In this document: positions 8,467-44,038 of the stretch, one piece after another | How positions within the stretch are numbered: position 1 is the stretch's first letter | Layout: every line of letters begins with the position of its first letter | NCBI GenBank assembly: GCA_022820025.1 | Contig: JAJEGF010000069.1 | Coordinates: 1 to 64,000 of the forward strand | Reading direction: 5' to 3' | DNA from: Chloroflexota bacterium | Lineage (GTDB): Bacteria; Chloroflexota; UBA11872 | Length of the DNA stretch: 64,000 bases | The notes under the pieces: model-generated | Database searches by the model: none | Told to the model about the DNA's origin: nothing | The model's input: the letters and a program-made list of their open reading frames with translations, nothing else | Position numbers and translations under genes: made by a program

Positions 8467-8956
8467 GGTGATACCTCCGCCGCCCGGGGTTCGCTGGTTG
8501 GTTGGGTCGGGACGCGTTGGCCGTCGCGGTGTTGCGAGGGGCCTGAATTTGCGTGTCCGTGCCGGCGGGTGTTGGTACCACTGTATAACGCGGTGGGGGT
8601 GGGTGGAGTTTCGTGGACCTTCGGATAGGGTGCGAGGCGGCGCGTAGCTCCTCAAGGACGCGACCAAACGGCGCGGTGCTCGTGGGTGAGGGAACGGATT
8701 GCGCCGCACGCGCGTAGGCTCTATTGGCGGCGAAGAGTCACTCGGGCAGATCGATGCGAAGCCAAAGGCCGGCTCAAACTTGGCGAAGCGGCCTGCGCAG
8801 GGCCGAAGGTCTGGCAGGTACGGTTACTTGTCGTGGGCTCGGTCTTGCGTTGCAGTCCCCTGCTCGCCCGTGGGATCGGATCCGAGAATCGGGACGACTC
8901 CCGTCGGTGCGTTGGCAGACGCCGGTGATTCCACAGATTGCCGTGCGGGACGGGGC
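8467..8956. other. Gene-free divergent region between two binding-protein genes
   Basis: These 490 bases separate oppositely oriented solute-binding protein genes and must hold both promoters. On the minus strand a TTATACAG stretch lies about 110 bases upstream of the GTG at 8466 and could be a -10 element, but I see no convincing -35. I found no clear plus-strand promoter, no conserved ORF and no strong hairpin. Confidence 0.4.
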
Positions 8957-10543
8957 ATGAGCTCGGATCGACGGATGTCGCGGCGTCGGGTTCTTGGACT
9001 CACCATGGGGCTGGGGCTTGGCGCAGCGGGAGCGGCGGTGCTGGCCGCGTGCGGAAGGACTCAGGTCGTTGACAAGATGGTCACTGTCGATGCGGAAGTC
9101 GAGCAGGCTGTCGAGAGAGTGGTCACAAAGGAAGTGGAGCAAGTTGTTGAGAAAGTGGCGACCGGTAGAGTCGGGCAAATCGAGAAAGTGCCGGTCGAGA
9201 AGAAGAAAGAGAGCAAAGTTCCAACACCGAGGCCCTCTCCAAGGCCACTTAGATGGGTCGACTATGTATGGTTCATGGCGGACGTATCAGGTCCACGCGG
9301 CAGCGCTTTGCAGTGGGGAATGGAGAGCTTTGCAAGGTGGCAGCCGGCTCTCAAGGTGAGGATTCAGGCAGCATCAGTCGACCAAGATGAGTCATTAAAC
9401 ACGATGTTCAAAGCAGGTTATGAGCCACACTTGATAATTGCCAACGAGTCGATCTTTCTACGATACCGTCAAGACGGTTTCTTAACTGAGGTCAGTCACT
9501 TGCTGTCGAAAATGGGGCTGGTCAAGGAGGATTACTACTTTGTTCCAGATTCCTATACATATAACAGCGCTGACCACTCTCTGCCGCAAACGAACCTCAT
9601 GGACGGGCCGCAGTTCGGGATGCCGTTTCAGATGGGGGTTAGTGGATTTGTGGCCAACGCTTCACTGGCTGAAGACGCTGGCGTTCGATTGCCCGACCAC
9701 GAGAACTCCTGGACGTGGGACGACTGGATCGAGTGGGACGCCATTATGACGGACCCTGAGACTGGAACGTTCGGTACATGGACGCGAGATGACTATGTGG
9801 GTCAATACATGCCTCAGATGTACTCGGCCGGTCTGAAGAAGCCGTTCGACGACGGCCTGACCAAGACCATGTTTGATCAGCCGCAAGCTCTAAGGGTATG
9901 GGAATACCTGATAGACAAGATCTACGTGCATAAGACATCACCCCGACCTGCTCAGGCTGAGGAATTCTACAAGATGCACACCAATCCGTTCGATGCTGGA
10001 TTCATCGGAATCTGGCCCTCCCGACGAGTGTCTACAGTTGGATATGGGTTGTATCGAATCAGGGAAGATTTCGAGTGGACGCTGCTGCCCGCAGTAACTG
10101 CTCCTGGCGGCGGACCGGCGGTGCACTCCTGGTCAGATCGAGCGCACCTCGTCACACGCGCTGCCGCCCTTGACCATGTGGAGGAGGCGGCCACCGTGTT
10201 GGCGGTGTTCCTGGCGGGCGAGACATTCCAGCGCCGACTTGGCATCGAGCGTGGGCATATGCCGGTGCACAAGGCCGCCCTTGGGGCGCCGGAGTCGCTG
10301 GAGCCGCCGCCGCAAGGTATGAAGTGGCTGAAGTACTACGCCGACCGGCCTGACAACCGAAACCTCTTTCCGTTCAACACATGGCGGCAGTGGTTCGACA
10401 AGCATCGAGAACTCGCCAAGAAGGGATGGACGGGGGAGCAGACGCCGGCGGAGGCGCTGGAGGCGTGCCAGGCGTGGGGGGTGGAACATCTGTCGAGGTA
10501 CGAGGGGCCGCGGCCGTTTGTGCGTGAGCCGGTGTATCCGTAG
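8957..10543 (+). CDS. Tat-exported solute-binding lipoprotein, copy 1 of a tandem pair
   Basis: This 528-residue protein has a Tat signal (SRRRVLGLTMG at residues 8-18) and lipobox LAAC with Cys32. The mature N-terminus has Val/Glu repeats (AVERVVTKEVEQVVEKV) and a charged Lys/Pro linker, then a family 1-type binding domain. Segments such as ENSWTWDDWIEWD and YVGQYMPQMYSAGLKKP recur almost unchanged in the next gene. Start is ATG at 8957; ATG at 8975 is possible and keeps the signal. The second gene follows the stop almost directly, suggesting one transcript. Ligand and transporter partners are not visible in this window. Confidence 0.78.
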   Translation: MSSDRRMSRRRVLGLTMGLGLGAAGAAVLAACGRTQVVDKMVTVDAEVEQAVERVVTKEVEQVVEKVATGRVGQIEKVPVEKKKESKVPTPRPSPRPLRWVDYVWFMADVSGPRGSALQWGMESFARWQPALKVRIQAASVDQDESLNTMFKAGYEPHLIIANESIFLRYRQDGFLTEVSHLLSKMGLVKEDYYFVPDSYTYNSADHSLPQTNLMDGPQFGMPFQMGVSGFVANASLAEDAGVRLPDHENSWTWDDWIEWDAIMTDPETGTFGTWTRDDYVGQYMPQMYSAGLKKPFDDGLTKTMFDQPQALRVWEYLIDKIYVHKTSPRPAQAEEFYKMHTNPFDAGFIGIWPSRRVSTVGYGLYRIREDFEWTLLPAVTAPGGGPAVHSWSDRAHLVTRAAALDHVEEAATVLAVFLAGETFQRRLGIERGHMPVHKAALGAPESLEPPPQGMKWLKYYADRPDNRNLFPFNTWRQWFDKHRELAKKGWTGEQTPAEALEACQAWGVEHLSRYEGPRPFVREPVYP

Positions 10544-10558
10544 GTGGGGGTGATTGGG

Positions 10559-12163
10559 ATGTCGGGCGAGGGACCGAGGGCTGTGAAGGCACAGCGGATG
10601 GGTTTGGGGTTACGGGTTTCGCGGCGTGGGGTGGTGGGGTTGGTGGGGCGGTTGGGAGTGGGGGTTGGCGGGGCGGCGTTGGGCGGGGCGGCGGCGAGTA
10701 GCCGGGCGCCCATTGCAGCGGCGGCCGATCGCGTCACGGAGCCGGAAGAGACGGCGGTTGTGACGGAGCGGCGACGTTACTCCGCGATGGTTGAAGTTCG
10801 GTATGCAACGGACCGAACGAGGGGTGTGCAGGGTGACGCCCTGAAATGGGGGCTGGAAGAGTTCGCCAAGATGCGGCCGGATATACGAGTCAACCTCCAC
10901 GTGCCTTTTGTTGGATATTCCGTCCGCGACTTTCTTCAGAGCATTGATCCACAGCTTGCAGCTCCCTCATTCACTGATTTCGGAGCCAGTGATCGCTTGC
11001 TTCAACGCATATTGCCGATTCGAGATCGGGAGCCTCTGCCCCACGTTGTGGCGCTTCGCCAGGATGAGTTTCTTGGCGTTGCGAAGTTGGACGTATTCCT
11101 TGAGATCAACGACCTTATGGCCAAGCGTGACTTCGACCAGGCTGAGGAACTATTTTTCGTGCCCGACAGCTTTACCGACAATAGCTTCGACCACTCGTTC
11201 CCGCAGCCCACGTCGATTACAGGTCGTCAGTTTGGCTTGCCGTTTGAGCTGACGATCAACGGCTTTTTGGCCAATTCGTCGCTGGCCGAGAGTGCCGGGG
11301 TGCGACTGCCGGACAGCGAGAACTCGTGGACCTGGGACGACTGGACCGAGTGGGACGCGCGGATAACAGACCCGGAAATCGGGATCTTTGGTACTTGGGC
11401 TCGGGACGATTACGCGGGCCAGTACATGCCGCAGATGTACACGAACGGGCTGAAGAAGCCTCTTGACGACGGCCTGACAGGGACCACGTTTGACCGGACG
11501 GAAGCGATGGAGGCGTGGAGCTATCTGATCGACAAGGTCTTTGCTCGTAAGACATCCCCTACGGCCACCGAAGCCCGGGTACTGGCGGGTGAGGATGAGA
11601 ATCCGTTTGCCGCCGGGAAGATTGGAATCTGGCCGACTGACCGGGTCTCGTCACTAGGGATGGAAGCAGCCCGAATCAACGGTCGATTCGCATGGACGCT
11701 GTTGCCCGCAGTCGTCGCGTCCGACGGTGGGGCGCCTGGGCATTCGTGGTCGATGCGAGCGAACTTGCTGACCGCCAGCGCCTGGCACGACGGGAGCGAT
11801 GAACAAGCTGTTCATCTAGCCGTATTCCTAGCTGGCGAGAGGTTCCAAGGGCGGGCGGGGATCGAGCGAGGATTCATGCCGGTCAATCGACGGGCCCTCG
11901 AAGCGCCCGAAGCGGAGGTTCCGCCGCCGGAAGGATTGAAGTGGCTAAAGGCGTATGCAAACCGGCCGGATAACCGGAGTCCGTATCCGTTTGAGGGATC
12001 GACGCTCTGGTGGAGATATCACCGGGAGTTGGCCAGACGAGGATGGTCCGGACGAATGTCGGCGGATGAGTCGCTGACAGCGTGCCAGGGCTGGGGCGAT
12101 CGCTACTTTCGCTTCTACTACGACGGGCCAAAGCCATTTGTGCGCGAGCCGGTGTATCCGTAG
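10559..12163 (+). CDS. Solute-binding protein, copy 2 of the tandem pair, without a lipobox cysteine
   Basis: A 534-residue paralogue of the upstream gene, with the same body motifs (ENSWTWDDWTEWD; YAGQYMPQMYTNGLKKP) and the same ending, KPFVREPVYP versus RPFVREPVYP. The leader keeps a twin-arginine pair (SRRGVVGL at residues 21-28) and a Gly/Ala hydrophobic stretch, but it has no cysteine, so the protein cannot be a standard lipoprotein. It may be released after cleavage near the Ala-rich AASSRA segment, or stay as an uncleaved anchor. Start ATG at 10559 is 15 bases after the previous stop. A tandem duplication followed by divergence of location is the simplest explanation. Confidence 0.75.
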   Translation: MSGEGPRAVKAQRMGLGLRVSRRGVVGLVGRLGVGVGGAALGGAAASSRAPIAAAADRVTEPEETAVVTERRRYSAMVEVRYATDRTRGVQGDALKWGLEEFAKMRPDIRVNLHVPFVGYSVRDFLQSIDPQLAAPSFTDFGASDRLLQRILPIRDREPLPHVVALRQDEFLGVAKLDVFLEINDLMAKRDFDQAEELFFVPDSFTDNSFDHSFPQPTSITGRQFGLPFELTINGFLANSSLAESAGVRLPDSENSWTWDDWTEWDARITDPEIGIFGTWARDDYAGQYMPQMYTNGLKKPLDDGLTGTTFDRTEAMEAWSYLIDKVFARKTSPTATEARVLAGEDENPFAAGKIGIWPTDRVSSLGMEAARINGRFAWTLLPAVVASDGGAPGHSWSMRANLLTASAWHDGSDEQAVHLAVFLAGERFQGRAGIERGFMPVNRRALEAPEAEVPPPEGLKWLKAYANRPDNRSPYPFEGSTLWWRYHRELARRGWSGRMSADESLTACQGWGDRYFRFYYDGPKPFVREPVYP

Positions 12164-13006: not shown

Positions 13007-14680
13007 TCAGGTCAGGGGCTGACGGGAATCTGGTTCGGCGGGGGATAGCCGGTCGGTTGGTGGTTTGTGGAGGATGAATCCCGGATAGCCATCGCCGGCG
13101 ATTTGGTTGCATCGTTTGCGGTAGGGGCCGACGCCGCCGGGGTAGGGCATGAAGACGCGGGGTTTGCCGGGGATGTTGGCGCCGAGGTACCAGGAGTTGG
13201 CGAGGACGTAGAGGGTGGTGTCGGCGACTTGGTTGACGTGGGCGACCCAGGCTTCTTCGGCCCGGGGGTCGGCTTCGGCGGTTTGGATGCCGCGCTGGCG
13301 CATCCAGGTGATGAAGTCGGCGATGAAGTCGATGTGCTGCTCGATGCTGACGGGCATGTTGCTGAGGACGGAGGGGCTGCCGGGGCCGGTGATCATGAAC
13401 ATGTTGGGGAAGCCGGCGACCTGGAGGCCGAGGTAGGTCTTTGGGCCCTCGGCCCACTTATCGCGTAGCGCCAGACCCTCGCGGCCGCGGATGTCGATCT
13501 TGAAGAAGGTGCCGGTCATGGCGTCGAAGCCGGTGGCGAAGACGATGATGTCGAAGTCGAAGTCCCGCTCGGAAGTTTGGATGCCCGTGGGCGTGATCCG
13601 CCGGATGGGGGTGGAGCGCAGGTCGACGAGGTGGACGTTGTCGCGGTTGTAGGTGGCGTAGTAGTCGGTGTCGAGGAGGGCGCGCTTGGCGCCGAAGGGG
13701 TGGTCGTGGGGGAGGAGCTTGCGGCTGGTTTCCGGGTCCTTGACGATCTGGCGGATCTTGCCGCGGATGAAGTCGGCGGCGGTGTCGTTGGCGGCCTTGT
13801 CGGTCATGACGTCGGCAAATGACCGGGCAATGAAGTCGTAGCCGCCCAGGGCCCACTGCTCCTCGTAGATCTGGTTGCGCTCAGCTTCGGGGTAGTCGAG
13901 TGCCGAACGCTCAACGGGGTCGTGGGGGCCGCCGCCCTGGCTCCAGCGGGCCTTTTCGAGGATTTCCTGGTAGTTGGGCTTGACCTCTTCCTCGATGAAC
14001 CGGCGGTCGGCGGCGCGGTGGCGGGCGGGAACGGTGAATTGAGGCGTGCGCTGGAAGACGGTAAGGCTCTCGGCCTGGCGGGCAATGACGGGGATGGACT
14101 GAACGCCACTGGAGCCGGTGCCGATGACGGCGACGCGCTTGCCCGAGAAGTCGACGGGGTCGTGCGGCCAGGCACCGGTGTGGTACCAGTCGCCCTGGAA
14201 GGAGTCCAAGCCCTTGATCGTGGGAACGTTGCCGGTGGAGATGCAGCCGATGCCGGTGATGAGGTACGTGGCGGTTAATCGGTCGCCCTGGTCGGTTTCG
14301 ATTTCCCAGCTGTTGGTGTCTTCCTGAAACGTGGCTCTGGTGACGCGGGTGTTGAACTGGATGTTGCGTCGGAGATCGAAGCGGTCGGCGACGTGCTCGA
14401 GGTAGGCGAGGATTTCGGGCTGCTCGGGGAACTTGCCGCTCCAGGTCCAGTCCTGGAGCAGTTCTTTCGAGAACGAGAAGCAGTAGATGTAGCTCTCGGA
14501 GTCGCAGCGGGCGCCGGGGTAGCGGTTCCAGTACCAGGTGCCGCCAACGCCGCTGCCGGATTCGTAGACCCGGACGGAGAGGCCCATGACGTCGCGGAGC
14601 CGGTGGAGCATGCCGAGACCGGAGAAGCCGGCGCCGATGACGACGGCGTCGAAGTCAGCGCGGCGTTCCAAACCCGTCAC
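13007..14680 (-). CDS. Flavin-dependent monooxygenase, Baeyer-Villiger type
   Basis: This 557-residue protein has an FAD-binding GAGFSG at residues 17-22, an NADPH-binding GTGSSG at 187-192 and, between them, FQGDWYHTGAWP at 161-172, matching the Baeyer-Villiger fingerprint F-x-G-x-x-x-H-T-x-x-W-P. GGTWYWNRYPGARCD near residues 46-60 is also characteristic. The family inserts oxygen next to ketones (cyclic, linear or aromatic) using NADPH and O2. The length is normal and all cofactor motifs are intact. The true substrate cannot be read from neighbours, which are a toxin module downstream and small lipoproteins upstream. Start ATG at 14680. Confidence 0.88.
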   Translation of the reverse strand: MTGLERRADFDAVVIGAGFSGLGMLHRLRDVMGLSVRVYESGSGVGGTWYWNRYPGARCDSESYIYCFSFSKELLQDWTWSGKFPEQPEILAYLEHVADRFDLRRNIQFNTRVTRATFQEDTNSWEIETDQGDRLTATYLITGIGCISTGNVPTIKGLDSFQGDWYHTGAWPHDPVDFSGKRVAVIGTGSSGVQSIPVIARQAESLTVFQRTPQFTVPARHRAADRRFIEEEVKPNYQEILEKARWSQGGGPHDPVERSALDYPEAERNQIYEEQWALGGYDFIARSFADVMTDKAANDTAADFIRGKIRQIVKDPETSRKLLPHDHPFGAKRALLDTDYYATYNRDNVHLVDLRSTPIRRITPTGIQTSERDFDFDIIVFATGFDAMTGTFFKIDIRGREGLALRDKWAEGPKTYLGLQVAGFPNMFMITGPGSPSVLSNMPVSIEQHIDFIADFITWMRQRGIQTAEADPRAEEAWVAHVNQVADTTLYVLANSWYLGANIPGKPRVFMPYPGGVGPYRKRCNQIAGDGYPGFILHKPPTDRLSPAEPDSRQPLT

Positions 14681-14808: not shown

Positions 14809-15033
14809 CTAGCGGAAGCCGCGCATCTTGTAGTTGCCGCTGGCGTCTTTCTCGGCACCCGGGAAGGAGTAGTCGTCGCGGGTCAGTTCCTGTTCGCCGC
14901 CGCAGCCGGCGAGGGTAGTCAGCGCCCCGGCGGAAACAGCGAGCAGGGCGACGAGCCGGCGACGGGAGAGTTGGCCGGATGGGATAGGGCTGGCGTCGAT
15001 GTTGGACGGTTGGCGTCGAGCGGGCACTTTCAT
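14809..15033 (-). CDS. Tat lipoprotein with 31-residue mature peptide (FPGA-KD family, copy a)
   Basis: This 74-residue protein is mostly export signal: SRRRLVALL around residues 23-31, a hydrophobic Ala/Leu stretch and lipobox LAGC with Cys44. Only 31 residues remain after lipidation. They contain LTRDDY, then FPGAEKD at mature positions 14-20 and GNYKMR. The protein is homologous to the genes at 15155-15364 and 16682-16909, which have mature parts of identical length. It lies downstream of a Gfo/Idh/MocA oxidoreductase and copy b on the same strand, so all three could be co-transcribed. I do not recognise a described family. A membrane-anchored accessory peptide is a guess. Confidence 0.65.
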   Translation of the reverse strand: MKVPARRQPSNIDASPIPSGQLSRRRLVALLAVSAGALTTLAGCGGEQELTRDDYSFPGAEKDASGNYKMRGFR

Positions 15034-15154
15034 TCACTCCAGAACGCGCAGGTCGCGGCGCGACGGGCGGTAGTTACCGAGCCTATTGTATTGGCCGCAA
15101 ACCGAGAAGGGGTTGGCGTTGGGATCGCTGTCAACGACTTGACATCAGTGAGAG

Positions 15155-15364
15155 CTACTGAGCGTTGCGCATCTGGTAGTTGCCGGTGCTGTCCTTCCTG
15201 GCGCCTGGGAAGTCGTAGTTGTCGCGGGTGAGTTTCTTCTCACCGCCACATCCGGCCACGGCGGCGAGGCCTCCAGCGGAGGCGGCGAGCAGGATGACGA
15301 AGCGGCGGCGGGGAATCCGGCCGTCGGCGAGTTCGAGATTTCGTGGCAGGTCGGGTGCGTTCAT
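15155..15364 (-). CDS. Tat lipoprotein with 31-residue mature peptide (FPGA-KD family, copy b)
   Basis: A 69-residue protein starting at ATG 15364. It has a twin-arginine signal (PRRRFVILL at residues 18-26) and lipobox VAGC with Cys39. The mature part is 31 residues: CGGEKKLTRDNY, FPGARKD and GNYQMR in order. It is about two-thirds identical to copy a in this part, and the conserved positions lie in the mature peptide rather than only in the leader, which argues for a selected function. It starts 55 bases after the stop of the oxidoreductase at 15420-16466, so an operon is likely. Confidence 0.65.
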   Translation of the reverse strand: MNAPDLPRNLELADGRIPRRRFVILLAASAGGLAAVAGCGGEKKLTRDNYDFPGARKDSTGNYQMRNAQ

Positions 15365-15419
15365 GGGTTTGCTCCCCTGCGTGGGTGCGGTGATGAAGCC
15401 GGCGGTCGGTGCGACAACT

Positions 15420-16466
15420 CTAGACCCACCCGTGCTCCTGCGAGACGACCTGGCCGGTGGTCTGCACGTTGTATTGAGTGCCGCCGGCAAGCGTGACCTG
15501 CTGGCCGGTGATGGACGAGCGTTCCGCGGCGAAGAGGATTGCCATGATGTGGCGGCCCCACTCGCCGGAGGTGGGCGGTTCCAGGTCTTCCTCAATGCAG
15601 CGGGCGAAGGCGCGCCATTCCTCGGTCATGCCGGCGGGTGGATCCTCGAAGGGGACGCGCATCCATTCGTTGCCCCGGCCGACGGCTACGAACCGGTCGC
15701 CCGAGCCGCTGATGCGGATACCGCCCCTCGCGCAGATGATTTCGGACTGGTAGTTGGGGGCGCCGTCGCGGTAGCCGATGGCGATGGCGATGCCGGGGAC
15801 ACCGTTCTTGTAGTCGACGAAGGCGACGCCGTAGTCGTCGCCGGCCTGGTAGTGGCTCTTCGTCCCGATTCGGGCCTTGACCCGAGCGGCCTGGGAGCCG
15901 ACGAGCCAGGTCAGCCGGTCGACCATGTGGACGCCGTTGGTCATCCAGTACCCGCCGCCGTGGAAGCGGCTGCGGTACTGGGGCCGGCGGTTAGCGTAGC
16001 CCCAGTTCTTGACGGAGTAGCAGACCACGGTGATGAGGGGGCCAAGCTCGCCGGAGTCGAGGATCTCCTTGGCCTTCATGTTGGGGCCGAGGAAGTGCTG
16101 GGTGAGGCCGATCATGAGCTTGACGCCGTTGCGGCGGGCGGCCTCGATCATCTCGTCGCACTGCTCGAGCGAGAGAGCCATGGGCTTCTCGACGAGCACG
16201 TGCTTGCCGGCGTTGAGGGCGTCGACCGTGAGGCGGTGGTGGAGTTGGTGGCCGAGGGTGACGGCGACGGCGTCGACTTCGTCGTCCTTAAGCAGTTCGG
16301 TGTGGTTGGGGTAGGCGCGGGGCACTTCGTAGCGGTCGCAAAAGGCCTGGCGCGGGGCTTCGAGGAGGTCGGCAGCGGCGACGATTTCGACGTTGGGCAG
16401 AGTCTCGATGGCGTCGCCGTGGGACCGGGAAATGCCGCCGAGTCCGATAATTCCAACGCGGAGCAT
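15420..16466 (-). CDS. Gfo/Idh/MocA family oxidoreductase
   Basis: This 348-residue NAD(P)-dependent dehydrogenase has a Rossmann start MLRVGIIGLGGISRSH, the EKP motif at residues 93-95 (lysine is the catalytic or structural hallmark) and a later GVHMVDRLTWLVG segment bearing the His/Asp of the substrate site. Family members oxidise or reduce hydroxyls on sugars, inositols and related compounds. I chose ATG at 16466, where homology begins; the frame extends upstream without conserved sequence. It is divergent from the lipoprotein/GH42-like/sialidase-like operon, which suggests a role in processing the released sugar. Two micro-lipoprotein genes follow on the same strand. Confidence 0.87.
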   Translation of the reverse strand: MLRVGIIGLGGISRSHGDAIETLPNVEIVAAADLLEAPRQAFCDRYEVPRAYPNHTELLKDDEVDAVAVTLGHQLHHRLTVDALNAGKHVLVEKPMALSLEQCDEMIEAARRNGVKLMIGLTQHFLGPNMKAKEILDSGELGPLITVVCYSVKNWGYANRRPQYRSRFHGGGYWMTNGVHMVDRLTWLVGSQAARVKARIGTKSHYQAGDDYGVAFVDYKNGVPGIAIAIGYRDGAPNYQSEIICARGGIRISGSGDRFVAVGRGNEWMRVPFEDPPAGMTEEWRAFARCIEEDLEPPTSGEWGRHIMAILFAAERSSITGQQVTLAGGTQYNVQTTGQVVSQEHGWV

Positions 16467-16681
16467 GGCTGCGGCTCCCGGGTGACGGGCCGATGTTTCG
16501 TGGCCCGAATAGCCACTATATCCGGCTCGTCGACCGGCGCTATAGAGACGCAATGCCGAGCGGCGTACGCTGTAGACCGTGCAGCCCCCGGTCAGGTCGC
16601 CGCCCGGGCGCATGGATGGGTCCGACGTGCATGCACCGAACGCCGACCTGATTGCCCGCGCACTCGCACAGGAGTGAAGAG

Positions 16682-16909
16682 ATGATGGCACCTGACCGGA
16701 ACCAGGCATCCGTCGTTCACGTCGACCCTGCCAGGACGGGCGGCCGGCTGTCCCGACGCCGTCTGGCCGTGCTGTTGGCCGCCTCGGCCGGCGCCGTTGC
16801 CACGCTGGCCGCTTGCGGTGAGCCGGAGAAGCGCAAGCCGGGCGGCTTTAGCTTCCCCGGCGCCGAGAAGGACGGCGCGGGCCGGTTCAAGTCGTCGCAG
16901 ACGCTGTAG
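16682..16909 (+). CDS. Tat lipoprotein with 31-residue mature peptide (FPGA-KD family, copy c)
   Basis: A 75-residue protein from ATG 16682, with GGAGTGAAGAG just upstream. It has a Tat signal (SRRRLAVLL at residues 24-32) and lipobox LAAC with Cys45, leaving exactly 31 mature residues. FPGAEKD sits at mature positions 14-20 as in copies a and b, but the surrounding sequence has diverged (GGFS before it, GRFKSS after it). It is the first gene of the operon with the GH42-like, sialidase-like and M20 peptidase genes, the next start being 32 bases away. Placement at the head of a glycosidase operon suggests a membrane-surface role linked to sugar handling. Confidence 0.65.
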   Translation: MMAPDRNQASVVHVDPARTGGRLSRRRLAVLLAASAGAVATLAACGEPEKRKPGGFSFPGAEKDGAGRFKSSQTL

Positions 16910-16941: not shown

Positions 16942-19044
16942 ATGGCTGCCGATGAGGGGTTTGGGATTCCCGGGGTTCCGTTTCCGGTGGGGGTGGAGTA
17001 CTACCGGGCGCCGACGCCGAAGCCGGAGGTCTGGGACGAGGACCTGAGGCGGATCCGGGCTTCGGGGATGCGGATCGTGCGCAGTTTCACGATGTGGAAC
17101 TGGATGGAGCCGCGGCCGGGCCAGTACGAGCTTGACGAGTTCGACCGGCTGTTCGACCTTGCGGAGAAGCACGACCTATACGTGTGGCTGGACATGGCGC
17201 TGGCAACGCACGGGGCGGGGCCGGAGTGGATGACGCGCGACTTCCCGGACATGCGCGTGGTCAACCAGCGGGGCCGGGCGGCCACGCCGGTGGCGAGCGC
17301 GGCGATGCCGCAGGGGTCGCAGATTCACTGTTACGACCATCCGCTGTGGCGACAGTTCGGCGGGGCGCTGATCGAGCACGTCGTGACACGGTACCGCGAC
17401 CGGCCGAGCCTGCTGATCTGGGGGTTGTGGGACGGGATTGCGATTTCGTCGGCGTTCAGCCGGCAGACCGATGGACTGCCCTGTTACTGCCCGCACACGC
17501 TGGCTCGCTACGAGAATTGGCTGCGGGAGCGGTTCACGCTGGACGCGCTGAACGAGCGCTTGCTGCGTCGCTTCCGGCGCTGGGAGGACGTGGAGCCGCC
17601 GCGTTCGAACGCGAGCCTGGTGGAGATGCTGCTGTACCGGCAGTTCCACTACGAGAACCTGGCGGGGCACCTGCAGTGGATGATCGGCGAGACGAAGCGG
17701 CTGGACCCGGTGCACGAGACGCGAACGCATGGGGCCTGGTATCCGCGGCCGTGGGACGAGCGCTGCGCGGCGGTGGCGGATAGCTGGGGGATGTCGATGC
17801 CCGCGAGCAGCCTGCTGACGGTGGAGGATCCGTACCAGGTCGCGGACCGGGCGTTCAGCTTTGACTGGTCGAGGAGCGCGGGGAAACGCGGGCGCTGGTG
17901 GAACGAGGAGATCTACGCGGGGATGTCGCCGGGCGGGGTGACCTGGAAGAAGCAGGCGGACCCGCGCGAATTGACGACGCTGCTGTGGATGACGCTGGCG
18001 TGTGGGGCGGCGGGGGCGATGTTCTGGCAGTACCGACCGGAGTACATGAGCTTCGAGTCGCCGGGGTACAACCTGGCGGCGCTGGACGGGCAGCCGACCG
18101 AGCGATTCGAGGCGGTGGCGCGGGCGACCGAGCAGATCCAGGGGTTGAGCGCGCACCTGCCGCTGGAGTGCCCGCGGGCCGAGGTCGGCGTCGTCTATCA
18201 CCCCGAATCGCAGGAGATGTTCGACTACAACGACGAGGACGATCGATTCCTGGCGGACGTGCGGGGGACGTACCGGGCGTTGTGGACGCAGGGAATTACA
18301 CCGGACGTGATCTCGCCGCGGATGGACTGGTCGGGGTACCGGCAACTGTTCCTGCCGAACGTGGCGCTGATGGACGAGGCGACGCGGGAGAACGTGCGGC
18401 GGACGCTGGCCGATCCCGACGGGCCGCGGCTGGTGGCCGAGGGCAGTTTCGGGATGTACTCGGCGGACGGGCAGTCGAGCTATGGGCCGCCGGACGGGTT
18501 GGCCGAGGAGTTGGGGGTTCGGGTGGCGGACGTTTCGGCGGTTACTACGTACGACATCGAGCAGGGGCGGAACGTGCTGGAAACGCCGCATGGACCGGTG
18601 GCGATTACCTCGCCATGCGGGTACGCGGTGCTGGAGCCGCAGGGGGATACGCGAAGCATCGCGACGATCGAGGGGCAGACGGTAGGGGTGCAGTCCGCGG
18701 ACGGGCGGTTTACGTGGTACGGGTTGACGCTGTCGGCAGGGTTCGGCGACGTTGGGCAGCCGGACCTGGTGCGGGGGTTGACGTGCGAGGCGGGGGTGTC
18801 GCCGCCGGTGGCGGTTGAGGGCGATCGGGCGGTTCCGATCGTGCGGCGGTCTCGGCTGGGCGGGTGGTTGGTGTTTGTTTTCAACCTGGAGCGGGCTGAG
18901 GCTCGGTGCCGGTTGCGGCCGCGGGAGCGGATTGGTGGGGCGATGGACCTGCTGACGGGTTGCGCTATCGAGGTCGAGGACAACGGGTTCGAGTTGGTGA
19001 TTCCGCCGTGGGACGTGGCGGTGGTGCATTGCACAGACGAGTGA
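16942..19044 (+). CDS. GH42-like glycoside hydrolase lacking the usual acid/base glutamate
   Basis: This 700-residue protein has the GH42 beta-galactosidase layout: an N-terminal TIM barrel to about residue 385, then a trimerisation-like domain and a small C-terminal domain. CYCPHTLARYENWLRERF and the WWNEEIYAG segment, where the nucleophile Glu of GH42 lies, are conserved. At the position of the general acid/base, where GH42 enzymes have W-Q-x-D-N-E, this protein reads IWGLWDGI, so the Glu is replaced by Gly. It may use another residue, another reaction, or only bind sugar. No signal peptide is seen, so it is probably cytoplasmic. ATG at 16942 has GGAGG 11 bases upstream; GTG at 16924 is an alternative. 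Confidence 0.75.
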   Translation: MAADEGFGIPGVPFPVGVEYYRAPTPKPEVWDEDLRRIRASGMRIVRSFTMWNWMEPRPGQYELDEFDRLFDLAEKHDLYVWLDMALATHGAGPEWMTRDFPDMRVVNQRGRAATPVASAAMPQGSQIHCYDHPLWRQFGGALIEHVVTRYRDRPSLLIWGLWDGIAISSAFSRQTDGLPCYCPHTLARYENWLRERFTLDALNERLLRRFRRWEDVEPPRSNASLVEMLLYRQFHYENLAGHLQWMIGETKRLDPVHETRTHGAWYPRPWDERCAAVADSWGMSMPASSLLTVEDPYQVADRAFSFDWSRSAGKRGRWWNEEIYAGMSPGGVTWKKQADPRELTTLLWMTLACGAAGAMFWQYRPEYMSFESPGYNLAALDGQPTERFEAVARATEQIQGLSAHLPLECPRAEVGVVYHPESQEMFDYNDEDDRFLADVRGTYRALWTQGITPDVISPRMDWSGYRQLFLPNVALMDEATRENVRRTLADPDGPRLVAEGSFGMYSADGQSSYGPPDGLAEELGVRVADVSAVTTYDIEQGRNVLETPHGPVAITSPCGYAVLEPQGDTRSIATIEGQTVGVQSADGRFTWYGLTLSAGFGDVGQPDLVRGLTCEAGVSPPVAVEGDRAVPIVRRSRLGGWLVFVFNLERAEARCRLRPRERIGGAMDLLTGCAIEVEDNGFELVIPPWDVAVVHCTDE

Positions 19045-19054
19045 GGGACTGGCT

Positions 19055-20302
19055 TTGAGCGTTTCGGACCTGTCGTCGTATGGCGAGGACGTGCTGCGGA
19101 CGTCGCCGGACTACGTGGCCTATGTGCCGCGGGGCGGGGCGGCGAACGACTGGACGAATCAGCACTTCCTGGTGGTGCGGTCGTGGAGCGGGGCGATCCT
19201 GGCGGTGTGGACGATGGCGACTTTCGAGGGGAAGCCGGACCAGCGGGTGGTCTTTGCGCGCAGCGACGACGCCGGGGTGACATGGAGCGAGCCGCGCGTG
19301 GTGGACGGCCCGAACGGCGACGACGGACGGATTGCCTCGTGGGGGTTCCCGGTGCTGGCGCCGGAGTTGCGGCGGGTGTACGTGTTCTATACGAAGAACG
19401 TCGGCGTGGTGGACGTGCGGGAGGACACCACGGGGCTGCTGGCGTACAAGTACTCGGACGACGAGGGCAAGACCTGGAGCGAGCGGCTGAGCCTGCCGAT
19501 CGAGCGCTCGGCGATCAGTCCAACGGATCCCGATACGCCGGAGAACTGGATCTGCTACCAGACGCCGATCCTGAATCCGCGGGGCGAGGTGATCTGCGGG
19601 TTCACGCGCTGGGCGAGCACCGAGTACCACGTGGAGCCGCACCTGTTCCAGCGGCACTCGGAGTGCTGGTTCCTGCGGTTCGACAATATCCTGACGGAGG
19701 CCGATCCGGAGCGACTGCGGGTGAGCACCTGGCCGAAGTCGCCGCACGGGATCCTGGTGCCGAAGCCGGGCGACCCGGAGCACAGCATTGCCCAGGAACC
19801 GGCGATCCAGAACCTGCCGGACGGGCGAATGATCTGCCTGCTGCGAACGTTGACGGGGTATGCCTGGTGGTCGGTGTCGGAGGACGCCGGGGAGTCTTGG
19901 TCGGAGGCCGAAGTGCTGCGGTTTGCCTCGGACGGGCGGCCGGTGCCGCATCCGATTTCGCCGTGTCCGCTGTACCGGCTGAGCGATGGGCGCTACCTGC
20001 TGATCTTCCACAACAACGTAGGGACGGCGCACGGAGCGGAAGGGCCGCACGACTCGAAGCGAAACCGGCGGCCGGCGTGGTTCAGCATCGGGACGGTGCG
20101 GGAGTCGGCGGACGGGCAGCCGCTGGCGTTCAGCGAGCCGCGGGTGCTGGCGGACAACGACGGGGTGGAATTGCCACCGGAAAGACACACGCAGGTCGCG
20201 ACCTACGGCAGCCTGCTGGAGCACGAGGGACGAACCACCTGGTGGTACCCGGACCGGAAGCACTACCTGGTGGGCAAGATCATCGACGACCTGCTCGCGT
20301 GA
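19055..20302 (+). CDS. Sialidase-like (BNR/Asp-box) six-bladed propeller protein
   Basis: This 415-residue protein has at least three Asp-box repeats, SDDAGVTWSEP, SDDEGKTWSER and SEDAGESWSEA, spread along a propeller fold as in exo-alpha-sialidases and related glycosyl hydrolases. The start is TTG at 19055, 10 bases after the GH42-like stop, indicating translation as an operon. No signal peptide is seen. The classical N-terminal arginine motif of true sialidases is not evident, so the actual substrate may not be sialic acid. It could act with the neighbouring GH42-like protein and M20 peptidase on an acylated or amino sugar. Confidence 0.72.
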   Translation: MSVSDLSSYGEDVLRTSPDYVAYVPRGGAANDWTNQHFLVVRSWSGAILAVWTMATFEGKPDQRVVFARSDDAGVTWSEPRVVDGPNGDDGRIASWGFPVLAPELRRVYVFYTKNVGVVDVREDTTGLLAYKYSDDEGKTWSERLSLPIERSAISPTDPDTPENWICYQTPILNPRGEVICGFTRWASTEYHVEPHLFQRHSECWFLRFDNILTEADPERLRVSTWPKSPHGILVPKPGDPEHSIAQEPAIQNLPDGRMICLLRTLTGYAWWSVSEDAGESWSEAEVLRFASDGRPVPHPISPCPLYRLSDGRYLLIFHNNVGTAHGAEGPHDSKRNRRPAWFSIGTVRESADGQPLAFSEPRVLADNDGVELPPERHTQVATYGSLLEHEGRTTWWYPDRKHYLVGKIIDDLLA

Positions 20303-20332: not shown

Positions 20333-21457
20333 ATGTCTGTATCCGAGGCGAGCGGGGCCACGCCGTTGCTGCCGCTGAACTGGGAGCGGTTGTTGCAGGG
20401 GTTTGTGGACATCCTGAGCGTGGACAGCTACTGGGGGAACGAGGACCGGGTGGTGGCGATCATCCAGCCGCGGCTGGAGGCGGCGGGGGTGGTGTGCCGG
20501 CGGGACCAGATTGGGAACCTGATCTGTCACTGGCCGGCGAAGGGGAAAGACTCGACCCCGATCATGCTGAACGCCCACATGGATACGGTGCTGCCAACGC
20601 CGGAGATGACGCCGGTGGTGAAGGCGGACGCGGTCTACTCCGACGGGTCGAGCGTGCTGGGAGCCGACGACAAGGCGGGAGTGGCGGCGATCGTGGAAGC
20701 GGTGGCGATGGTGGACGAAGCCGGGCTGCCGCACGGGCCGATCGACCTGGTGTTCACGGTGGGGGAGGACGTGGGGCAGTTTGGGGCAGCGGCGTTCGAT
20801 CCGAACGACGTGGAGTCGCGGGTGGCGCTGGTGCTGGACTTTGGCGGTCCGGTGGGCGTGATCTGCGACCGGCAGGCGGCGTCCTGCAATCTGAACGTCA
20901 CGTTCCACGGCAACGCGGCGGCGGCGGCGCATCCGGAGACCGGCCGGAGCGCGGTGAGCATGATGTCGCGAGCCATCGACCGGATGCCGCTGGGGCCGGT
21001 GGACGACTTGACGGTGGCCAATGTGGGGCTTGTTTCAGGCGGGGAGGCGCGCAACATCATCCCGCCCGAGGCGAAGCTGGTGGCGCAAGCGCGGGCGCTG
21101 ACGCAGGCGGCGCTGGACCGGCAGGTGGCGGCGATGCGCCAGGCCGTTGAGGAGGCGGCGGCGGCGTTTGGGGGACGGGCCGAGATCGAGGCGGAGCAGC
21201 GGTTCAAGCCGACGAGGTTTGGACACGACCATCCGGCGCTGAGGGTGGCCTACGCGGGCGTTCAGTCGGCCGGGCTGGAGCCGCGGTTCGTGCATACGTT
21301 TGGCGGGAGCGACGCGCAGAATTTCAACGAGAAGGGGATCGACTCGGCGATCCTGGGGACGGGTTACCAGGACATCCACTCGGTGAACGAATGGATGCCG
21401 CACGAGGAGTTGCGCAGGCTGACGCAGGTGACGGCGCAGGTCATCCTTAACACCTAG
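20333..21457 (+). CDS. M20 family metallopeptidase (PepT-like)
   Basis: A 374-residue protein with M20 metal-site motifs in order: NAHMDTV (His ligand and Asp), LGADDKAG (bridging Asp), then TVGEDVG, where most relatives have two Glu and this one has Glu-Asp. A dimerisation domain follows, then FGGSDAQNFNEKG and DIHSVNEW near the end, the last with the final His ligand. The family removes acyl or amino-acid groups (tripeptides, acyl-amino acids). It is last in the plus-strand operon, 30 bases after the sialidase-like gene. It could deacylate a glycoconjugate product released by its neighbours; this is inference from context. Confidence 0.82.
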   Translation: MSVSEASGATPLLPLNWERLLQGFVDILSVDSYWGNEDRVVAIIQPRLEAAGVVCRRDQIGNLICHWPAKGKDSTPIMLNAHMDTVLPTPEMTPVVKADAVYSDGSSVLGADDKAGVAAIVEAVAMVDEAGLPHGPIDLVFTVGEDVGQFGAAAFDPNDVESRVALVLDFGGPVGVICDRQAASCNLNVTFHGNAAAAAHPETGRSAVSMMSRAIDRMPLGPVDDLTVANVGLVSGGEARNIIPPEAKLVAQARALTQAALDRQVAAMRQAVEEAAAAFGGRAEIEAEQRFKPTRFGHDHPALRVAYAGVQSAGLEPRFVHTFGGSDAQNFNEKGIDSAILGTGYQDIHSVNEWMPHEELRRLTQVTAQVILNT

Positions 21458-21624: not shown

Positions 21625-22497
21625 CTACTGGTCGACGGCGGTGGCTACGAACTTGATACCGAGGAGGACTTCCTCGCTGACGTCGGCGACGAAGGGTGGG
21701 GTGGCCACTGCCAGGTCGTAGGTGGAGCGCAGGATGGTGGCCTCGGCCGTGCCTTCCAGGCGGTCCTCGGCCACCACGGTGACCGTGGCTGCAAACCGCT
21801 CCTCGGCCGTGATGTCGCGGATCTTGAGGTCGCCGACGATGGTGAACGTGGCCGTGTCGCCGACGGATACCGAGTCGGGGAGACCCTCGAGCGCGGTGGG
21901 CGTGAAGTCCACGAACTCGTAGCGGTCCTCGGCGGAATTCAGGATGCGGGATCGAGTGGCGCGGTCGCGGCGTTCCTCATCGGTCGCCAGGGTGCGCACG
22001 TTGATGCGGATGACGCCGACCTGCGAAGCCGCGGTGTTCGCGAAGTCCAGGATGATGTCCCCGGCCACTTGGTCGGTGCGTCCGACCACGCGGAAGGGCT
22101 CGCCGCGCAGGATTTCGTCGATTTCGTAGCGGGCCTCTGACTCCTCGGAAACGATGCGGAAGAGGGTGGCGTCACCGGTGGGCTGTGCCGCGGCCGGGGC
22201 CTGCGTGGCCTCCGGCGGTGGCGCCGCCGTGGTTGGTGCAGCGGTGGCAGGGGCGGCGGTTGCAGGCGCCGCCGTGGCTGGAGCGGCCGTGGCAGGCGCG
22301 GCGGTTGCCGGAGCAGCGGTTGCCGGAGCAGCCGTGGCCGGCGGGAGGGTGAGTTGGGGGGCGGAGATGGGTTGGCTGGCCTCGCCGGTTCCGCCGGTGA
22401 AGAAAATGAACAGCCAAGCAATGCCAGCGACTGCGATGCCCAGCAGGATGGCGACGGCCGCCGCCCGGACCAATCGGTTGTTTATGAGTTCGCCCAT
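21625..22497 (-). CDS. Membrane-anchored YceI-like domain protein with Ala/Thr/Pro repeat linker
   Basis: This 290-residue protein has one N-terminal membrane helix (residues 11-33), a PATAA repeat linker (about 53-92) and a YceI-like lipocalin domain from about residue 108. The domain signature includes SEARYEIDEILRGEPFRVVGRT, GVIRINVRTLATDEERRD and the closing ILRSTYDL. YceI-type proteins bind isoprenoid or amphiphilic compounds in an eight-stranded barrel. Here it would be tethered outside the membrane on a flexible stalk. It converges on the M20 peptidase gene and is divergent from the interrupted gene starting at 22919. Start ATG at 22497. Confidence 0.78.
   Translation of the reverse strand: MGELINNRLVRAAAVAILLGIAVAGIAWLFIFFTGGTGEASQPISAPQLTLPPATAAPATAAPATAAPATAAPATAAPATAAPATAAPTTAAPPPEATQAPAAAQPTGDATLFRIVSEESEARYEIDEILRGEPFRVVGRTDQVAGDIILDFANTAASQVGVIRINVRTLATDEERRDRATRSRILNSAEDRYEFVDFTPTALEGLPDSVSVGDTATFTIVGDLKIRDITAEERFAATVTVVAEDRLEGTAEATILRSTYDLAVATPPFVADVSEEVLLGIKFVATAVDQ
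22222..22341 (-). repeat. 15-bp tandem repeats encoding PATAA units in the YceI-like protein
   Basis: About eight consecutive 15-base units encode Pro-Ala-Thr-Ala-Ala, the last with Thr for Ala. Nucleotide differences between units are mostly synonymous. The array forms the extracytoplasmic stalk and is likely to change length by slippage while keeping the frame. Confidence 0.85.
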
Positions 22498-43786: not shown

Positions 43787-44038
43787 ATGACAGACAGCAC
43801 GCTCACCCGCCGCCGGATACTGGCGGCAATCCTGGTCGCGGGAGTCGCCGGCGTTGCCTGCGGTCCTTCGCCAAGCGCCTCGAACGAATCCGGGGACTCG
43901 TCGGGGTCATCGGACACCTCGGGATCGACGACCGAGCCGACCAAGACTCCAACTCTCGACTTCTTCCGCGCCGGCGGCCGAAACCCGAGCTACCCAACGC
44001 CGACTCCGCAGCCCATCCCCGGGCAGAAACAGTCCTAA
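43787..44038 (+). CDS. Small Tat lipoprotein with low-complexity mature part
   Basis: An 83-residue protein: twin-arginine signal (LTRRRILAAILVAG at residues 6-19), lipobox GVAC with Cys25, then 58 residues rich in Ser, Thr, Gly and Pro ending with a Pro/Gln tail (PTPTPQPIPGQ). It has no FPGA-KD motif and so is not a clear member of the family at 14809-16909, though its build is similar. It sits inside the ABC transporter operon between the binding protein and the ATPases. Function unknown; a surface-tethered accessory peptide for the transporter is one possibility. Confidence 0.6.
   Translation: MTDSTLTRRRILAAILVAGVAGVACGPSPSASNESGDSSGSSDTSGSTTEPTKTPTLDFFRAGGRNPSYPTPTPQPIPGQKQS

What the first reader, a model, noticed from the sequence alone, without database searches (positions are those of the whole stretch)
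14809..16909. Three micro-lipoproteins with mature peptides of exactly 31 residues and an invariant FPGA-x-KD core
The genes at 14809, 15155 and 16682 encode Tat signals with lipobox cysteines. After the Cys each has exactly 31 residues, with FPGA-x-KD at mature positions 14-20 and an aromatic residue at 12 and 25. Leaders vary in length (43, 38 and 44 residues) while the mature length is fixed, which points to selection on the peptide. They flank a divergent sugar-catabolism locus: two after a Gfo/Idh/MocA gene and one heading the GH42-like operon. Use of the Tat route for so small a peptide is unusual and might mean co-export with a folded partner.
Basis: partly seen in the sequence, partly recalled or inferred. 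Interest (0 to 1): 0.72.

Follow-up and report, generated by a model that had tools for sequence, protein, structure and literature searches.

The report
Genus-specific family of tiny membrane-anchored peptides
The three tiny genes are real and belong to a previously unlabelled, large family of lipid-anchored peptides found in only one genus of Chloroflexota bacteria, where they sit inside nutrient-uptake and catabolism gene clusters; what they do is unknown, but evolution keeps the peptide almost unchanged.

Summary
ORFs at 14809-15033(-), 15155-15364(-) and 16682-16909(+) encode lipobox signal peptides followed by 31 residues (Cys included) with FPGA-x-KD at positions 14-20. All three are conserved in position and sequence in about ten related genomes, and codon analysis shows protein-level purifying selection on the mature peptide. 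(1) Mature length is not fixed: close homologues have 30, 31 or 33 residues, and a homologous branch 49-55. (2) The broader invariant is lipobox-Cys + aromatic-x-F-P. (3) Tat-type lipoprotein signals are ordinary in this lineage (large solute-binding lipoproteins use them too); co-export with a folded partner is unsupported. (4) The three genes are the tip of a genus-restricted 'micro-lipoproteome': 24 sequence groups found (mature 19-58 aa), next to genes for solute-binding proteins, sulfatases, sugar dehydrogenases, GH42. In the window's genome 6 of 11 such loci lie within 5 kb of a solute-binding protein (6.7% expected). The FP family occurs in 1 of 224 sampled phylum genera and matches nothing significant in Pfam, NCBIfam or PDB sequences. 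Best mechanism (tentative): lipid-anchored linear-motif peptides on the outer face of a single membrane, docking to uptake machinery.

The parts
14809..15033 (-). micro-lipoprotein A: 43-aa twin-arginine/lipobox leader + 31-aa mature peptide CGGEQELTRDDYSFPGAEKDASGNYKMRGFR
   Evidence: orthologues; pN/pS mature 0.29
15155..15364 (-). micro-lipoprotein B: 38-aa leader + 31-aa mature peptide CGGEKKLTRDNYDFPGARKDSTGNYQMRNAQ; DNA duplicate of A (73% over 157 nt)
   Evidence: pN/pS mature 0.08
16682..16909 (+). micro-lipoprotein C: 44-aa leader + 31-aa mature peptide CGEPEKRKPGGFSFPGAEKDGAGRFKSSQTL; heads the GH42 operon
   Evidence: core-to-GH42 spacing exactly 122 nt in all 8 sequences where both are held
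13007..14680 (-). FAD-dependent Baeyer-Villiger-type monooxygenase, downstream of A
   Evidence: FMO-like 5.1e-15; NCBIfam PtlE 6e-84 but below its cut-off
15420..16466 (-). Gfo/Idh/MocA dehydrogenase, upstream of B
   Evidence: PF01408 1.4e-30
16942..19044 (+). GH42-like glycosidase, 32 nt after C
   Evidence: PF02449 3.2e-36
19055..20302 (+). BNR/sialidase-like repeat protein of the C operon
   Evidence: PF13088 2.5e-21
20333..21457 (+). M20-family peptidase of the C operon
   Evidence: PF01546 7.7e-18
8699..10543 (+). solute-binding lipoprotein (ABC uptake), same type of RR/lipobox leader
   Evidence: PF01547 9.6e-9
10544..12163 (+). second solute-binding protein, its domain 3.1 kb from A
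   Evidence: PF01547 6.3e-8

Best explanation
SHOWN: A, B and C are real, conserved micro-genes bearing lipidation signals; they belong to a genus-restricted family of operon-embedded micro-lipoproteins with an aromatic-x-F-P core, which shares the genus with other micro-lipoprotein groups without that core. The genome encodes TatC and the lipoprotein signal peptidase, and no Omp85-type outer-membrane assembly protein was found, so the mature peptides should sit lipid-anchored on the outer face of a single membrane. INFERRED: the mature part is not a folded domain but a linear motif. Each catabolic cluster carries its own variant, and the peptide docks to membrane-surface uptake machinery (a solute-binding lipoprotein or its permease), helping to assemble or position the transport complex of that cluster. 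The N-terminal segment spaces the aromatic-x-F-P motif a short distance from the lipid anchor; the C-terminal segment (KMRGFR, QMRNAQ, FKSSQTL) would give cluster specificity. I put the family identity at about 0.95 and the docking role at about 0.3.
For: Protein-level purifying selection in A, B, C and further groups; homology of the 31-aa and ~50-aa branches; fixed synteny and spacing over the genus; 6 of 11 micro-lipoprotein loci of the window's genome within 5 kb of a solute-binding protein against 6.7% expected, P about 3e-5; in the fullest loci (L032, L033, L035) two members, F and G, directly flank a solute-binding lipoprotein; AlphaFold finds no fold, mean pLDDT 64, only a 13-residue helix in the long branch; TatC and LspA present, no Omp85; absent from the sister genus although large lipoproteins there match the same signal profile.
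Against: No partner is shown. 5 of 11 loci have no solute-binding protein within 5 kb, including those next to a short-chain dehydrogenase and an aldo-keto reductase; a D-like copy persists in L039 where the solute-binding gene is absent from the locus. The association test treats loci as independent and was made on one genome. Lipidation and membrane location are predicted from sequence only; no expression data.
Confidence: 0.4

Rival explanations
1. Assembly factors for a membrane protein: like LptM of enterobacteria, a tiny lipoprotein whose first residues after Cys-Gly insert into a larger partner and stabilise it, here a permease or a membrane enzyme of the same cluster.
For: Same anatomy: Cys-Gly start and short mature part; LptM is ~6 kDa and works by binding to LptD-LptE (PMC10567701). 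Conserved short peptide with no predicted fold.
Against: No match to the LptM model beyond the signal peptide (one homologue, E 0.52); no outer-membrane assembly marker here, so the LptD partner is not expected; adjacent genes encode soluble enzymes rather than one constant membrane protein.
Confidence: 0.2
2. Secreted or shed signal: the mature peptide is released (or carried on vesicles) and works as a cell-to-cell or host-directed lipopeptide, made when the matching nutrient cluster is on.
For: Very small, conserved to the C terminus, several variants per genome, lineage close to the MAG SB0662_bin_61.
Against: No receptor, protease or quorum gene constant beside the genes; the conserved part is the mature peptide rather than the signal-peptide tail, unlike enterococcal pheromones (the pheromone comparison is from general knowledge).
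Confidence: 0.12
3. Membrane-active toxin or toxin-antidote pair, like entericidins A/B, which are tandem tiny lipoproteins.
For: Tandem tiny lipoproteins (A/B; the pair beside the short-chain dehydrogenase).
Against: No Pfam entericidin or colicin-lysis match; mature peptides are hydrophilic with balanced charge; they are tied to catabolic operons; copy number per locus varies without pairing.
Confidence: 0.06
4. One reading: Tat is used because the peptide is exported together with a folded partner.
For: Twin-arginine motif in A, B and C and TatC in the genome.
Against: Large lipoproteins of the same genome, 8 of 9 in the scanned stretches, and those of the sister genus carry the same kind of signal; some micro-lipoproteins lack RR; neighbouring enzymes differ between loci.
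Confidence: 0.05
5. Selfish or by-product sequence: spreading intergenic micro-ORFs without cellular function.
For: Copy number changes quickly between genomes and A and B are DNA duplicates.
Against: Low pN/pS in many groups, positional orthology over the genus, constant spacing to GH42; no terminal repeats flanking the genes.
Confidence: 0.04

Closest known systems
LptM (YifL; NCBIfam NF047847 SS_mature_LptM)
   Same: ~6 kDa lipoprotein, lipobox Cys followed by Gly, short mature part, lineage-restricted conservation (PMC10567701)
   Different: No significant sequence match; acts at an outer-membrane LPS translocon, and this genome shows no Omp85 outer-membrane assembly protein; not a many-copy, operon-specific set
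Entericidin A/B and Atu8019 (EcnB-like)
   Same: Tiny lipoproteins; ecnA/ecnB are tandem (PMC7296081)
   Different: No Pfam match; outer-membrane or vesicle associated; not tied to catabolic operons
Solute-binding lipoproteins of the same genome (PF01547)
   Same: Same RR + lipobox leader, same clusters
   Different: 400-600 aa folded domains; no aromatic-x-F-P core after the Cys in the N-termini I read

Membership tests
Tat-type lipoprotein | lipobox [LVI][ASTVI][GAS]C after a hydrophobic stretch | tested here: met
   LAGC, VAGC, LAAC in A, B, C
Tat-type lipoprotein | twin arginine before the hydrophobic stretch, and TatC and LspA in the genome | tested here: met
   SRRRL / PRRRF / SRRRL; TatC 1.5e-61, LspA 4.5e-25. 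Not universal over the wider micro-lipoproteins
Tat-type lipoprotein | lipid attached in the cell | not testable with these tools
   needs proteomics
LptM | match to the LptM profile over the mature N-terminus | tested here: not met
   no hit for A, B, C; one wider homologue E 0.52, mostly the signal part
LptM | outer-membrane LPS translocon partner | tested here: inconclusive
   No Omp85 in the genome (E. coli and other outer-membrane control genomes ring); LptD itself not searched
Entericidin | match to the Pfam entericidin profile | tested here: not met
   no such family among hits up to E = 1
FP micro-lipoprotein family described here | lipobox-Cys, aromatic-x-F-P core, product under 100 aa, profile match | tested here: met
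   A, B, C at E 8e-17, 2e-17, 4e-16 (A, B and C are among the rows of that profile)
   30, 31, 33 in the locus; 49-55 in the homologous branch

The most novel reading that the evidence does not exclude
One bacterial genus has evolved a repertoire of lipid-anchored 'address' peptides, one or a few per catabolic cluster, which organise substrate-specific uptake complexes on the cell surface: a peptide-barcode layer between transporter and operon that has no counterpart I know of.
Probability: 0.15. Interest if true: 0.85.

Novelty: new variant of a known kind. Interest (0 to 1): 0.55.

Why it matters
Small lipoproteins are usually met one at a time. Here a whole clade-specific set is embedded in uptake and catabolism operons, under strong selection and with no match in the family and structure-sequence libraries searched. 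It gives a tractable case of how very short genes arise, spread by duplication and become fixed beside particular metabolic functions, and a possible unknown component of nutrient uptake in an uncultivated Chloroflexota lineage.

Tried and rejected
The profile of the whole close family had no stretch conserved enough for the named-genome scan; a narrower one gave two loci: a Chloroflexi MAG, SB0662_bin_61 (true), and a Solirubrobacteraceae locus (chance: a 153-aa lipoprotein with only leader similarity). Rfam finds no RNA element at the locus, and synonymous sites vary freely, so an RNA explanation of the conservation was dropped. PDB sequence search of the profiles gave nothing convincing. 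Hits of the profile outside the genus are at noise level. Literature searches found no paper on such a family, within the open-licence library only. The two low-confidence structure models were not taken on to a fold search.

Full report
Observation. I read the three ORFs directly. A (14809-15033, minus) and B (15155-15364, minus) follow a Gfo/Idh/MocA gene and precede a flavin monooxygenase of the Baeyer-Villiger type; C (16682-16909, plus) is divergent and lies 32 nt before a GH42-like gene followed by a BNR-repeat protein and an M20 peptidase. Each has a GGAG-like sequence before its ATG, a twin-arginine leader, a lipobox and a mature part of 31 residues counting the cysteine. The stated positions of FPGA-x-KD and of the aromatic residues are correct.

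Are they genes? A protein search of 60 relatives found the locus in same-genus genomes G003 to G012, and a profile of mature peptides found 8-14 matches at E <= 1 in each of them. Order is conserved: Gfo-B-A-monooxygenase on one side and C-GH42 on the other. The distance from the C core to the GH42 start motif is exactly 122 nt in all eight sequences where both are held; A to the monooxygenase motif is 233 nt in six of seven loci where the two are adjacent (L031 differs by three nt, L039 has an insertion). Pooled pN/pS of the mature parts is 0.29, 0.08 and 0.21 for A, B and C, against 0.44, 0.61 and 0.67 in the 22 codons before the cysteine (pairs of sequences are not independent). Synonymous sites vary, so the constraint is on protein. 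No Rfam family matches the region.

Length. A and C orthologues always have 31 residues in this sample, but B orthologues have 30 or 31, and other members of the same locus 30-33. The family also has a longer branch of 49-55 residues with the same GGYxFP core followed by YIS(D/E)EER..L and a C-terminal TPxxG-like tail; profile-profile comparison gives probability 95% and E 3.7e-8 for the relation. Fixed length is therefore a local property of some orthologue groups, not a rule.

A wider set. In the fullest loci (L032, L033, L035) more such genes are threaded through the cluster: F, a solute-binding lipoprotein, G, Gfo/Idh, D, E, (a C-like copy in L032), B, A, monooxygenase, and divergently C, GH42 (L032 begins at F and L035 ends after E). 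The window shows the contracted form. Elsewhere in the genus I found micro-lipoproteins beside sulfatases (L042, L059, L054, L041, L066), a short-chain dehydrogenase (L051 and relatives), Gfo/Idh genes and a PhyH enzyme (L044), aldo-keto reductases (L045, L115) and solute-binding proteins (L099, L111, L112). In all I count 24 sequence groups with mature parts of 19-58 residues; 15 share aromatic-x-F-P and a further group has FP in the form DPFPY. Whether the groups without FP are homologous to A, B and C is not shown, and three or four groups rest on a single sequence. Because some searches used FP profiles, the share of FP groups is biased upward; a search with the signal peptide alone gave both kinds.

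Genus restriction. The FP profiles match only one genus: 1 of 13 genera in the class and 1 of 224 in 400 genomes of the phylum (that large search scores fewer candidates per genome). The signal-only profile hits many ORFs under 170 aa in the genus but, among the matches listed, essentially none in two genomes of the sister genus, where its hits are large lipoproteins. The nearest named record is a Chloroflexi MAG, SB0662_bin_61. The smallest genome of the genus, G002, shows only one remnant with an internal stop, but it is also the least complete (76%).

Tat. The genome has TatC and LspA. Eight of nine larger lipoprotein candidates in the scanned stretches of the window's genome have RR before the hydrophobic stretch (the ninth is probably a false positive), and many 400-700 aa frames match the same signal profile. 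Tat-type lipoprotein leaders are the norm here, so no special reason is needed for the micro-lipoproteins. Some of these lack RR; what all share is the lipobox.

Association. Solute-binding proteins (PF01547) number 25 in the genome. Of 11 micro-lipoprotein loci 6 lie within 5 kb of one, where 6.7% would be expected (binomial P about 3e-5; within 3 kb: 5 of 11, P 8e-5). The loci were found by sequence, not by neighbourhood. Gfo/Idh/MocA genes are too many (92) to be informative. Sulfatases (32) adjoin two of these loci.

Fold and function. AlphaFold gives no fold for the 31-residue peptide (mean pLDDT 64) and only a 13-residue helix for the long branch; the alignments are shallow and the lipid is not modelled, so this is weak support for a linear motif. 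No Pfam, NCBIfam or PDB sequence match reaches significance. No Omp85 gene was found, in line with a single membrane. The best reading is a lipid-anchored linear-motif peptide acting at the outer membrane surface together with uptake machinery. That step is inference; the identity of the family is shown.

Known things. LptM is the closest by working principle (tiny Cys-Gly lipoprotein that binds to a larger partner; PMC10567701) but the membership test on sequence fails. Entericidins (discussed in PMC7296081) are similar in size and tandem arrangement only.

Noticed in passing
L112:4237-4296 and L114:4518-4577 (mature parts): Conserved micro-lipoprotein with a mature part of only 19 residues (CGDQEVEHGKFKLRSGASW / CGDDKVEHGKFKLRSGASW), next to a solute-binding protein gene.
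   Followed up: partly
L054:2200-3099: Three tandem micro-lipoproteins with a FDYKISGDR core between a solute-binding lipoprotein and a sulfatase in the single-contig genome G001.
   Followed up: partly
G002:C44:29102-29212 (L081, L102): The small, incomplete genome G002 of the genus shows only a remnant of the family with an in-frame TAG, suggesting loss.
   Followed up: no
window 43859-44038: Another short lipobox ORF (mature about 59 aa, Ser/Thr/Pro-rich, CGPSPSASNESGDSS...), without the F-P core.
   Followed up: no
window 21625-22497: Protein with a long repeated TAAPA linker after a membrane-spanning N-terminus.
   Followed up: no
whole genome G000: 92 Gfo/Idh/MocA and 32 sulfatase matches in a 3.6 Mb genome: strong expansion of these catabolic gene families.
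   Followed up: partly
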